A stretch of 64,000 nucleotides of DNA from assembly GCA_903917735.1 (NCBI GenBank), contig CAIXBR010000010.1, positions 1 through 64,000 on the forward strand, written 5' to 3'. The notes beneath the pieces were generated by a model. It made no database searches. It saw only the letters and a list, made by a program, of their open reading frames with translations, and was not told the DNA's origin. The DNA comes from an uncultured Elusimicrobia bacterium. GTDB lineage: Bacteria; Elusimicrobiota; Elusimicrobia; Elusimicrobiales; UBA9959. Positions within the stretch are counted from its first letter, which is position 1, and every line of letters begins with the position of its first letter. Positions 42,194 through 46,299 of the stretch are shown in pieces. Made by a program: the position numbers and the translations under genes.

Positions 42194-42898
42194 ATGAAAA
42201 AATTGACCTCATTAGCTTTGATACTGGCTTTCTCGCAGATCGCCGGGGCGCAGATGAACTTCGACAAGGGCATAGACGTGAAGAGCGCCATTAGCAGCGC
42301 TAAAGCCTCGGACGCCGTCATCCCCGCCGCCAGGTTCCCCCAGATGGTGAACATGACCCGCGACTGCAAGAAGATAACCTTCGGCGCCGCCGACCCGCTC
42401 GCCTCCGCCGTAGTGCCGCTCCGCGCCCAGGAAGAGGACCAGGACTGCCAGAACATGGGCCCCTACGTAGGCCAGATCTGCACCCCCTCCTTCAGGAACT
42501 ACAGCGCCGACGCGCAGATCGTAGTAACTCAACCCCGCGAACTTAAACCGGACCAAAAAGAAGTTTTTGAAGTCTGCCTGTGGGGCTCTTTCCTCAGCAT
42601 GAAACCGGTCTCCACCGTTTACAAATACAACGTCAACCGTGTGCTCGATGTTTTCCAGATCACACCTCAGGGCCCCATTCAGCCTAAGGAGCTGGCCAAG
42701 AGCGCGCCCGCCCAGGGTGTCTGCAACATAGCCATGGACGACGGCCACTTCTGCACCTACCGCTGCAAGGACGGCAGCTACATCACCAACCCCAACCCGT
42801 TCCCTACGATCCCGGCCCCCAACCAGTGGGTAGGCCCGATCTCCACTCCCTGCAGGCCCACCGTTCCCAACACGCCGCTTATAACCTTCACGAAGTAA
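42194..42898 (+). CDS. Secreted cysteine-rich protein of unknown function
   Basis: A 234-residue protein with a clear signal peptide (MKKLTSLALILAFSQIAGA) and an AAGGAG ribosome-binding site. The mature part holds eight cysteines (RDCKK, DQDCQ, QICTP, FEVCL, GVCNI, HFCTY, YRCKD, TPCRP), which suggests four disulfides in the periplasm or outside. The end is Pro/Asn-rich (NPNPFPTIPAPNQW). No family is recognised. A terminator hairpin (42917-42950), later duplicated by an IS insertion, follows 18 bases after the stop. Confidence 0.7.
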   Translation: MKKLTSLALILAFSQIAGAQMNFDKGIDVKSAISSAKASDAVIPAARFPQMVNMTRDCKKITFGAADPLASAVVPLRAQEEDQDCQNMGPYVGQICTPSFRNYSADAQIVVTQPRELKPDQKEVFEVCLWGSFLSMKPVSTVYKYNVNRVLDVFQITPQGPIQPKELAKSAPAQGVCNIAMDDGHFCTYRCKDGSYITNPNPFPTIPAPNQWVGPISTPCRPTVPNTPLITFTK

Positions 42899-42916: not shown

Positions 42917-42950
42917 ACAAAAAACAGCCGGCTAAAAGCCGGCTGTTTTT
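42917..42950. terminator. Terminator hairpin, left copy of the 34-bp IS target duplication
   Basis: AAAAAACAGCCGGCT and AGCCGGCTGTTTTT form a symmetric stem with an AA-containing loop, able to stop transcription in both directions. The identical 34 bases recur at 44821-44854 on the other side of the IS element, so this is one half of a target-site duplication. Confidence 0.92.
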
Positions 42951-44820
42951 CCCGACTTTGACACTTAAACCCTGAAAATCCGCCTTGTCTCCAATGAAGT
43001 GGGTCTAGGAAATCCGAAAATGTAGGCACACAATCTTTCTAAATTGTGCCAATTTATATTGACGACAAACGCGGTGCCTGCCATAATATTTGTGTGTCTT
43101 GAGAATAAATCATAACGCACAAGGCGTAGCGTACCTCCAGATCGCCCGCAGCTACCGGGAAGCCGGCAAAGTCAAACGGGAGATTTTGTTTTCACTTGGC
43201 CGACTGGACGTATTGCAGGCCACCGGACAAATTGACGCACTGGTAAAAAGCCTGTCGCGCTTCGCGACGCGGCAACAACTAATAGATTTAAGCGAAGATG
43301 TTTCAGTGTCACAGGTATACCACCTGGGTGCCGCGCATGTGGTGAACAAAATGCTGGAACGCCTGGAAATCAAACGGATGCTTGAACGCCTGGCGGCGGA
43401 GCATCCTCGGATGAAGCTGCCCTGGGCGGCGATAATTACCGGTATGATTATGAGCCGGTTTATCAAGCCGTGCTCGAAACGGCGATTAAATCTGGAACAA
43501 TGGGAAAAGATTTATCCCGGTATTTTGGAAATGGACGCGCCGCCACTGAAAAGTTTTTATCGTGCGATGGATGTGCTATGGGAACACCGGGAGGATGTCG
43601 AGGCGACACTGTTTGAACGTGGCGGGGAGAGGGATTTATTCAACCAAGAGCTCGACGTGGTTTTTTACGATTTAACGACGCTTCATTTTGAAAGCGTCAA
43701 TGACGCCCCAGACGACGGCGAGTTGCGGCGCTTTGGTTACAGCAAGAACCACCGTAAAGATTTGACGCAGGTAATCCTGGGGCTGCTGGTAGACCGGGAC
43801 GGTGTGCCGGTCGGATACCAGCTGTTTCCCGGCAACACGTATGAACCGCACAGCCTGCCGGTCATCCTGGAAAAACTGAAAACTAAATATCACATTACCC
43901 GGATTGTTTTAGTTGCGGACCGGGGAATAATCACGAAAGATAATTTAAACGAGTTGCAGAAAGCGCAGATGGATTTTATTTTGGGGGCGCGTTTGTGGGG
44001 CATGACGAAGGAATGGCAAGCCGAAGTAATGGATAAGAGCAAATATCGGCTGTTAAACAAAGCCGGGACTTTGCTAATCCGCGAAATGGAATACCAGAGC
44101 AGTCGATTGATTGTGACATAGAGCCGGGAGCGCGCCGAGCGGGACGCATTCATCCGGAAAGAGATTGTAAGAAAAATCCGGGAGCAGTTGGACAAGAAAA
44201 ATCCAGAGCCGAAGCAATTCGTGACGCACAAGGGATACCGGCAGTTCTTAAACGGTTTAAATGAGGGAACGCCGGTAATTGACGAGCAGGCCATCAGCGA
44301 GGCTCAAACCCGCGACGGTTTTTTCGGTGTACTAACAAATGTCGCAGGCACAACGTTGCGCGACGAAGAAATTTATGACCGCTATAGAGATCTATGGCGC
44401 GTGGAAGACGCTTTTGGGGAAATCAAGGGGCCAATCCAAACGCGGCCGATGTTTCATTGGGTTGATTCCCGGATTCAGTCACACGTGCTCTTGTGCCTGT
44501 TGACCTATTATGTGGAAGCAATCCTCATCCGGGATTTTCGCAAAGCCAAGTCATCGTTCACAGTAGGCGAGTGGTTTCGGGCGCTCAATGAAGTCTATGC
44601 GATTCCCGTAGACGTGCGCGGAACGCGGGCGTGGGTGCGCAATGAAATTAAGGGAGTTGCGGCAAAGGGCTACGAAATTATGCGGATGAAATTGCCAGAC
44701 CGGGTGCTCAAGATCGAGAAAATACACACCGGGGAGGGTGTAGGTACACAAGATTTTGCGTAAATTGCAAAAAGTGCTTAAAAATTAAGGATTTCTCAAA
44801 AACTAACTGTCAAAGTCGGG
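42951..44820 (+). mobile_element. IS1634-like insertion sequence, 1870 bp
   Basis: The element is bounded by terminal inverted repeats that share CCCGACTTTGACA, one variable base and TTA (42951-42967 and 44820-44804). It is flanked by exact 34-bp direct repeats (42917-42950, 44821-44854). It carries one transposase gene with IS1634-type DDE and Y-R-E-K features. IS1634 and the related IS1549 are known for unusually long, variable target duplications, which fits. Upstream of the transposase, TTGACG (43059-43064) and CATAAT (43082-43087) are spaced 17 bases, but the start would then be almost leaderless. A GGCACACAAT...ATTGTGCC hairpin lies at 43025-43050. Confidence 0.9.
43090..44763 (+). pseudogene. 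IS1634-family transposase interrupted by an in-frame amber codon
   Basis: Frame 43090-44121 and frame 44188-44763 are the same frame, separated by a single TAG at 44119-44121. Together they read as one transposase of about 557 residues. The DDE residues are visible: Asp in VVFYDLTTLHF, Asp in VLVADRGI, and Glu after the stop in the Y-R-E-K motif YRDLWRVEDAFGEIK. In relatives the stop position reads Tyr (VTYS.KRA.KD), so a TAC or TAT to TAG change is likely. The possible start is TTG at 43090 or 43099. The first product lacks the catalytic Glu, so the element is probably immobile unless the amber is suppressed. Confidence 0.88.
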
Positions 44821-44854
44821 ACAAAAAACAGCCGGCTAAAAGCCGGCTGTTTTT
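44821..44854. terminator. Terminator hairpin, right copy of the 34-bp IS target duplication
   Basis: Identical to 42917-42950. It lies 17 bases past the dacB stop (minus strand) and serves as its terminator; before the insertion a single hairpin served both convergent genes. Confidence 0.92.
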
Positions 44855-44871: not shown

Positions 44872-46299
44872 TCAGAAATCCTTGTACAGCTCCAGCAGAA
44901 GCTCCTCGTGCAGTTTGTCCAGCGCGGAAGGCTGGGCGGAATAGCCGTTCATTATAGAGGTGAAGGCCAGCGTCCGGCCTTTTTTCGTCTTAAGGTAGCC
45001 GGTATAGGAACGCACACCGTTAAGCGAACCAGACTTGAGCCTTAAATTGTTTTCAAGGGGCGTGCCTTTGCCCATGGCGCGCAGGTGTCCGGTGGCGTCC
45101 GGGTCGCCCGGATAGACCAGAGAATCGGAAAAGGCGGCGTAATAGCTCTTCTTGTAGACCGCGCGCAGCAGATCCGTGAAATTTTCGGCCTTGACGGTAT
45201 CGCGGGAGGAAAGCCCGCAGCCGTCCACGATGTCCAGTTCGGAGACGTCGGCCCCGGCTGAGGACAGGAAGCCCCGCACGGCGGAAAGACCCGCTTCCGG
45301 GCTGCCGCCGCCGAGGTGGCGCAGCAGGAGCTCGGCGTACAGGTTGAAGCTGTGCTTGTTGGTCACGCGCACCACGCTCCTGAGCGGCGCGGAAACGGTC
45401 TCCATTATTTTTGTCTTTACAGCCGGGGCGCTCCCGCTGTAAGGCTTCTTATTCGAGTTTATCCCTGCTTTTACCAGGTAGGCGTTAAAAGCCTGCGCGG
45501 CGAACAGGGCCGGGTCCGGCAGCGCGCCCTTTATGGCGAACTCAGGCTGGCCCTGCGGTATCGAGCCGCGCAGCACGGCCTGGTACTGACCGGGGAAAGC
45601 GTAGATGTAGCCTTCATCTCCGGAACCGGACGGGCCGGTCTTCATATGGTCCTCGAATTTAAGGCCCTCCACGTACGGCTCGGTGCGCAGCACTGTAGCC
45701 TCTCCGCCCGCCTTGTCCGCCGGTTTAAGGAACAGTTTGTAAAGCCCGTCATTGATGGTAAGCGCCGAAGGTTGGGCGGCGTAGTAATTGCCGATGTCCT
45801 CCCACGCCCAGGAACCGGGCGGCACGCTTTCAAAAGCCGTGTCGTCGCCCACTACCGCTCCGTTTATCACTTTTATGCCCGCTGTCTTTAGCGCCGCCGC
45901 CCAATCCTTGAAAACCTCCTCCATAGGCGCCGCGCCTTTTACCAGCTGCGAACCCAGCGAAGGGTCCCCTCCGCCCTTTATATAGATGTTGCCGTTCAGA
46001 AAGCCGTTGGAAATAGCACCGTCGTAATACAGTACCGTGCCGAACGTATGCTCAGGGCCGAACTTATCCAGGGCCGCGGCGGTCACAAAGACCTTCAGGA
46101 TGCTGGCCGGGGTCAGGTTGCGGCGCGGGTTGAACTCCGCCACGGTCTTCCCGGTGGCCGTGTCTTTCACGCTTAGTCCCCAGGCCGCGTTCTTTATGCC
46201 CGCGGAGCCGGCCGCCGCCTTGATCTGCCCTTCGATACCGGACGCGCCGAGCAGGAGCGGGAAAAGGAGTAAAAAGGAAACGAGGATCGTCGTTCTCAT
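44872..46299 (-). CDS. dacB: D-alanyl-D-alanine carboxypeptidase/endopeptidase (PBP4, DacB type)
   Basis: A 475-residue periplasmic penicillin-binding protein of class C. After a signal peptide (MRTTILVSFLLLFPLLLGAS) the catalytic motifs are SxxK in TPASILKV, SxN in KHSFNLYAELLL and K(S)G in LKSGSLNGVRSYTGYL. The insert between SxxK and SxN (IYIKGGGDPSL, VVGDDTAFE) is typical of DacB. It trims or cleaves peptidoglycan peptide bridges. No Shine-Dalgarno is visible; a TATACT lies seven bases before the ATG and mirrors one for the divergent gene. Confidence 0.95.
   Translation of the reverse strand: MRTTILVSFLLLFPLLLGASGIEGQIKAAAGSAGIKNAAWGLSVKDTATGKTVAEFNPRRNLTPASILKVFVTAAALDKFGPEHTFGTVLYYDGAISNGFLNGNIYIKGGGDPSLGSQLVKGAAPMEEVFKDWAAALKTAGIKVINGAVVGDDTAFESVPPGSWAWEDIGNYYAAQPSALTINDGLYKLFLKPADKAGGEATVLRTEPYVEGLKFEDHMKTGPSGSGDEGYIYAFPGQYQAVLRGSIPQGQPEFAIKGALPDPALFAAQAFNAYLVKAGINSNKKPYSGSAPAVKTKIMETVSAPLRSVVRVTNKHSFNLYAELLLRHLGGGSPEAGLSAVRGFLSSAGADVSELDIVDGCGLSSRDTVKAENFTDLLRAVYKKSYYAAFSDSLVYPGDPDATGHLRAMGKGTPLENNLRLKSGSLNGVRSYTGYLKTKKGRTLAFTSIMNGYSAQPSALDKLHEELLLELYKDF

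What the first reader, a model, noticed from the sequence alone, without database searches (positions are those of the whole stretch)
42917..44854. IS1634-like element duplicated a whole terminator: 34-bp target repeats, each a functional hairpin
The 34 bases at 42917-42950 and 44821-44854 are identical and each is a complete bidirectional terminator. The insertion gave each convergent neighbour (cysteine-rich gene and dacB) its own terminator. It therefore insulated both genes instead of damaging them. Long target duplications are a known IS1634/IS1549 property.
Basis: partly seen in the sequence, partly recalled or inferred. Interest (0 to 1): 0.6.

Follow-up and report, generated by a model that had tools for sequence, protein, structure and literature searches.

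The report
Jumping gene duplicated a transcription stop
A small bacterial jumping gene landed on the single transcription stop signal shared by two facing genes and copied it, so each gene keeps its own; close kin in a related species land on such stops more often than expected, which is a modest new twist on a known kind of element.

Summary
A 1870-bp IS1634-family element (42951-44820) with perfect 13-bp terminal repeats is flanked, without gap, by identical 34-bp direct repeats, each a complete bidirectional terminator by sequence.

Duplication of one ancestral terminator is well supported. All 12 homologues (45% identity or more) of the cysteine-rich gene in the genus end in exactly one such terminator; none of 25 dacB homologues has this hairpin. 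The window's own empty site was not found, but the IS has a second case: in sister species G026 a 73-bp target repeat holds another whole terminator, and G018 keeps that site empty with one hairpin.

Long variable target repeats are known for IS1549/IS1634. New here: in 3 of 3 paired insertions of this IS in the genus (34, 73, 180 bp) its left end sits in a terminator, against 1.4% of positions and 5.2% of noncoding positions; a Persicobacter relative (406 bp) has its right end there. It is not family-wide: 0 of 3 in G067, 0 of 5 in Actinobacteria/Aliarcobacter, and two unpaired G026 ends fail. Numbers are small; survival between convergent genes or T-run preference may contribute.

"Insulation" fits the anatomy but is untested. 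This copy's transposase has an internal stop.

The parts
42194..42898 (+). cysteine-rich secreted-looking gene, left neighbour, no family match
   Evidence: ORF; no Pfam or NCBIfam match; homologues in 28 of 32 genus genomes at E <= 0.001
42917..42950 (.). left copy of the 34-bp target repeat: bidirectional terminator, native to the cysteine-rich gene
   Evidence: exact repeat; fold; same hairpin behind homologues without IS
42951..44820 (+). IS1634-family insertion sequence, 1870 bp
   Evidence: terminal repeats, transposase family
42951..42963 (+). left terminal inverted repeat CCCGACTTTGACA
43090..44763 (+). transposase frame, interrupted by TAG at 44119-44121
   Evidence: relatives read on at this place
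44808..44820 (-). right terminal inverted repeat
44821..44854 (.). right copy of the 34-bp target repeat: bidirectional terminator, the duplicate, now behind dacB and behind the transposase
   Evidence: exact repeat; hairpin absent behind 25 of 25 dacB homologues in the genus
44872..46299 (-). dacB, D-Ala-D-Ala carboxypeptidase (PBP4, S13), right neighbour, convergent
   Evidence: TIGR00666 E 4.2e-69, PF02113

Best explanation
An IS1634-family element inserted at the one bidirectional terminator between the cysteine-rich gene and the convergent dacB gene. The two target strands were joined 34 bp apart, just outside the hairpin, so that repair made two complete terminators around the IS (shown by anatomy and comparison). 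Both neighbours kept an intact 3' end, and the IS lies between two terminators. In the same genus this IS repeatedly joins its left end within or just behind a terminator, while the other end is joined at a variable distance (34, 73, 180 bp). I infer that a terminator (as hairpin, T-run or polymerase pause site) is a preferred landing point for the first join and that the second join is loosely placed. This copy is probably immobile now because its transposase frame has an internal stop.
For: 34-bp repeats abutting perfect terminal repeats. One hairpin behind 12 of 12 homologues of the cysteine-rich gene, never two; 0 of 25 dacB homologues with it. Same IS in G026: target repeats of 73 of 73 and 180 of 180 identical bases; the 73-bp one holds a whole terminator, and G018 has the empty site with one hairpin. 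Left junction in a terminator in 3 of 3 paired insertions of the genus against 1.4% of positions and 5.2% of noncoding positions: P 1.4e-4 on noncoding; 2 of 2 without the window, P 0.0027. Persicobacter relative with a 406-bp repeat: right end at a terminator with an 11-bp stem.
Against: The window's own empty site was not found. The preference rests on three insertions, one of them the trigger of the finding; two unpaired left ends in G026 (C6, C8) are not in detected terminators, giving 2 of 4, P 0.015. 0 of 3 in G067, 0 of 5 long-repeat elements of Actinobacteria and Aliarcobacter, and only a weak stem in the second Persicobacter copy. The anchored end is the left one in the genus but the right one in Persicobacter.
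Confidence: 0.75

Rival explanations
1. Two identical hairpins were already present and the IS inserted between them.
For: The window's own empty site is not available.
Against: The repeat ends exactly at both IS ends; 0 of 12 homologues of the cysteine-rich gene have two hairpins and 0 of 25 dacB homologues have this one; the 73-bp case has a real empty site with one hairpin.
Confidence: 0.03
2. The IS has no target preference; insertions in or next to terminators between convergent genes are the ones that survive selection.
For: Noncoding sequence is about 8% of G026 and terminators lie in part of it; IS1634-family elements are over-represented between convergent genes in a large survey (PMC9208149 passage); long-repeat relatives elsewhere are not at terminators.
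Against: Terminator-like segments are only 5.2% of noncoding positions, yet 3 of 3 paired left ends lie in them.
Confidence: 0.3
3. The IS prefers T-runs or AT-rich tracts, and terminators are hit only because they hold T-runs.
For: T5 abuts the left end in the window, in the 73-bp case and at C6, and A5/T5 abuts the right end of both Persicobacter copies; short-repeat members use AT-rich 5-6 bp targets (PMC2266710 passage).
Against: Only 46 of 928 T5/A5 runs, 26 of 143 noncoding ones, lie in terminators in G026; the 180-bp case joins in the loop of a GC stem with no T-run at the junction.
Confidence: 0.3
4. The duplication is an adaptation: the insertion was kept because it insulates both genes.
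For: Layout in the window and in the 73-bp case, where both convergent genes end with a hairpin copy.
Against: 21 of 25 dacB homologues have no detectable terminator; the two copies are still identical, so the insertion may be too young for selection to show; no expression data.
Confidence: 0.1

Closest known systems
IS1549 (Mycobacterium smegmatis) and IS1634 (Mycoplasma mycoides), IS1634 family
   Same: Family of the transposase; long direct repeats of variable length, 8-514 bp depending on the copy (PMC2266710 passages)
   Different: No terminator at the junctions is stated in the passages read; the original papers (PMC93511, PMC106989) are not held. The sequences of IS1549 and IS1634 themselves were not compared
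Short-repeat IS1634-family members such as ISAzo6, ISPfe2, ISGka5
   Same: Related transposase; similar terminal repeats, e.g. CCCGACTTCAACAGTG
   Different: Target repeats of 5-6 bp; parted from the long-repeat elements by one branch of the tree (99/95)
IS1272 (IS1182 family), inverted-repeat-replacing insertion
   Same: Targets stem-loop structures (PMC5678879 abstract)
   Different: No target repeat is made and the target inverted repeat is replaced; here the hairpin is kept and doubled
Insertion sequences that target REP palindromes; group IIC introns behind terminators (the latter recalled, no call)
   Same: Preference for extragenic palindromes (PMC1525189, title and start of abstract in the search listing)
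   Different: REPs are dispersed repeats, here the targets are unrelated gene terminators; the introns use a different chemistry (recalled)

Membership tests
IS1634 family | Transposase of the IS1634 family | tested here: met
   NF033559, 332.9 bits against a cut-off of 100, E 3.8e-99; DDE_Tnp_1
IS1634 family | Length 1500-2000 bp and terminal consensus C-----YT (PMC2266710) | tested here: met
   1870 bp; CCCGACTT at both ends
IS1634 family | Intact catalytic residues and active transposition | not tested
   Residues were not examined one by one; this copy has an internal TAG, so activity is unlikely
IS1634 family | Target repeat of 5-6 bp (typical members) | tested here: not met
   34 bp; 73 and 180 bp in G026. 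This separates it from the typical members, not from the family, since long-repeat members are known
Long-repeat (IS1549/IS1634-like) subset | Long target repeats of variable length in copies of one element | tested here: met
   34, 73, 180 bp in close copies of one genus
Long-repeat (IS1549/IS1634-like) subset | Groups with long-repeat elements on the transposase tree | tested here: met
   8 long and 9 short rows parted by one branch, 99/95, one change against a shuffled mean of 5.9; unrooted, and IS1549 itself not in the tree
IS1272-type inverted-repeat-replacing insertion | No target repeat; target inverted repeat replaced | tested here: not met
   Target repeat present and hairpin kept twice

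The most novel reading that the evidence does not exclude
A lineage of IS1634-like elements uses intrinsic terminators as landing pads: one end is joined at the terminator, the other at a variable distance of tens to hundreds of bases, so that insertions tend to leave a terminator on each side, sparing the neighbours and shielding the element. This would also give a first handle on the long, variable target repeats: the first join is placed by the terminator (hairpin, pause or R-loop) and the second by how far the strands are open.
Probability: 0.35. Interest if true: 0.6.

Novelty: new variant of a known kind. Interest (0 to 1): 0.4.

Why it matters
A passage of PMC2266710 (2008) says that no mechanistic model had been proposed for the long, variable target repeats of these elements. 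A junction fixed at a terminator with a variable second junction is a concrete, testable clue. It would also be a way for a jumping gene to insert without harm and to multiply terminators in a genome.

Tried and rejected
Other copies in the own genome: only this full copy, plus a 33-residue remnant on C34. Empty site of the window: none of the 25 dacB loci examined has the cysteine-rich gene beside dacB; macB lies in the same locus in 15 of the 25, at gaps of 10 to 1281 bp. IS relatives in viral contigs: none. Plasmid elements whose repeats could not be resolved: 5 of the first 14 (L209, L214, L216, L217, L218) and 7 of the next 12 (L223, L224, L225, L227, L228, L230, L231). Idea that the hairpins belong to the IS: rejected, since the terminal repeats lie inside them and the cysteine-rich gene carries the hairpin without any IS. 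Two different gene masks gave the same terminator share of noncoding sequence, 5.2%. The first tree held a mistranslated row (G222) and long branches; it was rebuilt with G222 in its right frame, a Novosphingobium row added, and G162 (4-bp repeat), L. johnsonii and R. rhodochrous dropped; the split was the same. Elusimicrobiota elements with unresolved repeats were not counted.

Papers: passages seen in PMC2266710, PMC9208149, PMC3281130, PMC8024623; abstract of PMC5678879; PMC1525189 only in the listing. Ten searches listed no title or abstract stating terminator targeting by IS1634-family elements; the library holds only open papers, so this is weak.

Full report
What is there. The element runs from 42951 to 44820 (1870 bp). 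It begins and ends with CCCGACTTTGACA in inverted orientation. The 34 bases ACAAAAAACAGCCGGCTAAAAGCCGGCTGTTTTT stand directly before and directly after it, identical at every position. Either strand folds into a 14-bp stem with a 3-nt loop (-21.8 and -21.6 kcal/mol) bordered by T-runs, so each copy looks like a terminator in both directions; that it works as one is inferred. The transposase matches NCBIfam NF033559, IS1634 family (E 3.8e-99), and Pfam DDE_Tnp_1, but its frame has a TAG at 44119-44121 where relatives read on. It is the only full copy in the genome.

Was one terminator duplicated? The cysteine-rich gene on the left has 12 homologues of at least 45% identity in the genus loci fetched; all 12 have exactly one terminator-like hairpin starting within 60 nt of the stop, 10 of 12 with the GCCGGC...GCCGGC stem, none with two. 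dacB has 25 homologues in the genus loci fetched; none has this hairpin, and 4 have any detectable terminator. In 15 of the 25, macB lies in the same locus as dacB, in 10 of them less than 170 bp away, without the cysteine-rich gene. So the left hairpin is native to the cysteine-rich gene and the right one is the copy. The exact empty site of the window was not found.

A second, cleaner case. A scan of 340 genomes of the phylum for the terminal repeat found six ends of a near-identical IS in G026, same genus, five of them at contig ends. Pairing ends by their flanks gave target repeats of 73 bp (73 of 73 identical) and 180 bp (180 of 180). The 73-bp repeat ends in a whole terminator whose T-run abuts the IS left end, as in the window. 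In G018 the same region is contiguous with one hairpin. It lies between convergent genes (by my reading of the translations, a release-factor-like gene and a CBS-domain gene; no family search was run on them), and after insertion both keep a complete 3' end with a hairpin. In the 180-bp case the left junction is in the loop of an 11-bp stem followed by TTTATC.

Is this a preference? With a fixed detector (stem of at least 7 pairs with at least 4 GC pairs, loop 3-10, at least 4 T in 6), terminator-like segments cover 1.4% of 320 kb of G026 and 5.2% of its noncoding positions. The left junction is inside one in 3 of 3 paired insertions (34, 73, 180 bp), P = 1.4e-4 on noncoding positions. Leaving out the window, which was picked for this property, it is 2 of 2, P = 0.0027. 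Two more left ends in G026 without a partner, C6 and C8, are not in such segments, which weakens this to 2 of 4, P = 0.015. The detector was written after the cases had been seen, so these values are indicative. T-runs alone explain less: 46 of 928 T5/A5 runs, and 26 of 143 noncoding ones, lie in terminators.

The wider family. From plasmids I fetched 14 of 126 records with a relative of the window transposase, one more Persicobacter record of the same list, and 12 of 122 records found with the Persicobacter transposase. Repeats could be resolved in 15 of these 27: eight short (5-6 bp; L205-L208, L210-L213) and seven long (Persicobacter 406 and 33, Aliarcobacter 682, Actinomyces oris 57, Rhodococcus 24 and 28, Mycobacterium riyadhense 610; the 682 and 610 bp repeats each hold one mismatch). 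A second copy of one Rhodococcus element on the same plasmid has 158 bp. In the tree of 26 transposases, nine with short and eight with long repeats, the window among the latter, are parted by a single branch (99/95; one change against a shuffled mean of 5.9). The tree is small and unrooted, so it does not say which state is older.

Terminators in the wider group. With a slightly looser detector, the Persicobacter 406-bp insertion has an 11-bp-stem terminator at its right-end junction and the 33-bp one a weak 6-bp stem; the other five of seven have none. A related Persicobacter lacks the IS and is contiguous across the left junction; the terminator side could not be aligned there. Three pairs of ends in G067 with the same terminal repeat (49, 50 and 152 bp, the last 149 of 152 identical; its transposase is not assembled) are not at terminators. 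So terminator landing is at most a trait of some lineages.

What is known. Long variable repeats of IS1549 and IS1634 (8-514 bp, no mechanistic model) and 5-6 bp in other members are stated in PMC2266710 (passages). IS1634-family elements are over-represented between convergent genes (PMC9208149 passage). Hairpin targeting is known for IS1272, without target repeats (PMC5678879 abstract). Ten searches of open papers listed nothing on terminator duplication or targeting for this family, which is weak evidence of novelty.

Verdict. The insulation reading is plausible but untested, and dacB may not need it. The interesting addition is the repeated placing of one IS end at a terminator with a variable second end. 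The sample is small, and selection against gene disruption cannot be excluded.

Noticed in passing
L139:142-297 (G026 contig C6): An abundant dispersed repeat of about 155 bp: matches in all 32 genomes of the genus searched, 75-98% identical, about 7 to 19 listed matches per genome. Its function is unknown.
   Followed up: no
L176 around 1418-1465 (G018) and L084 around 1255-1290 (G026): The stop codon of the release-factor-like gene seems to lie in the loop of its own terminator hairpin, in frame in both genomes.
   Followed up: no
G035:C257:10844-11296 (L147): A 453-bp stretch with both terminal repeats of this IS type and only the end of the transposase: a MITE-like deletion derivative.
   Followed up: no
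G222:C27:29-2440 (L086): A relative 84% identical in the transposase, but 2412 bp long, with about 0.5 kb between the first 70 residues and the rest of the frame.
   Followed up: no
window 42194-42898: The cysteine-rich gene has no family match, occurs in more than one locus in several genomes of the genus, and carries its terminator with it; beside dacB it was seen only in this genome.
   Followed up: partly
L240 and L233 (Rhodococcus sp. M8-35 plasmid): Two copies with identical transposase on one plasmid have target repeats of about 23-24 and 158 bp.
   Followed up: partly
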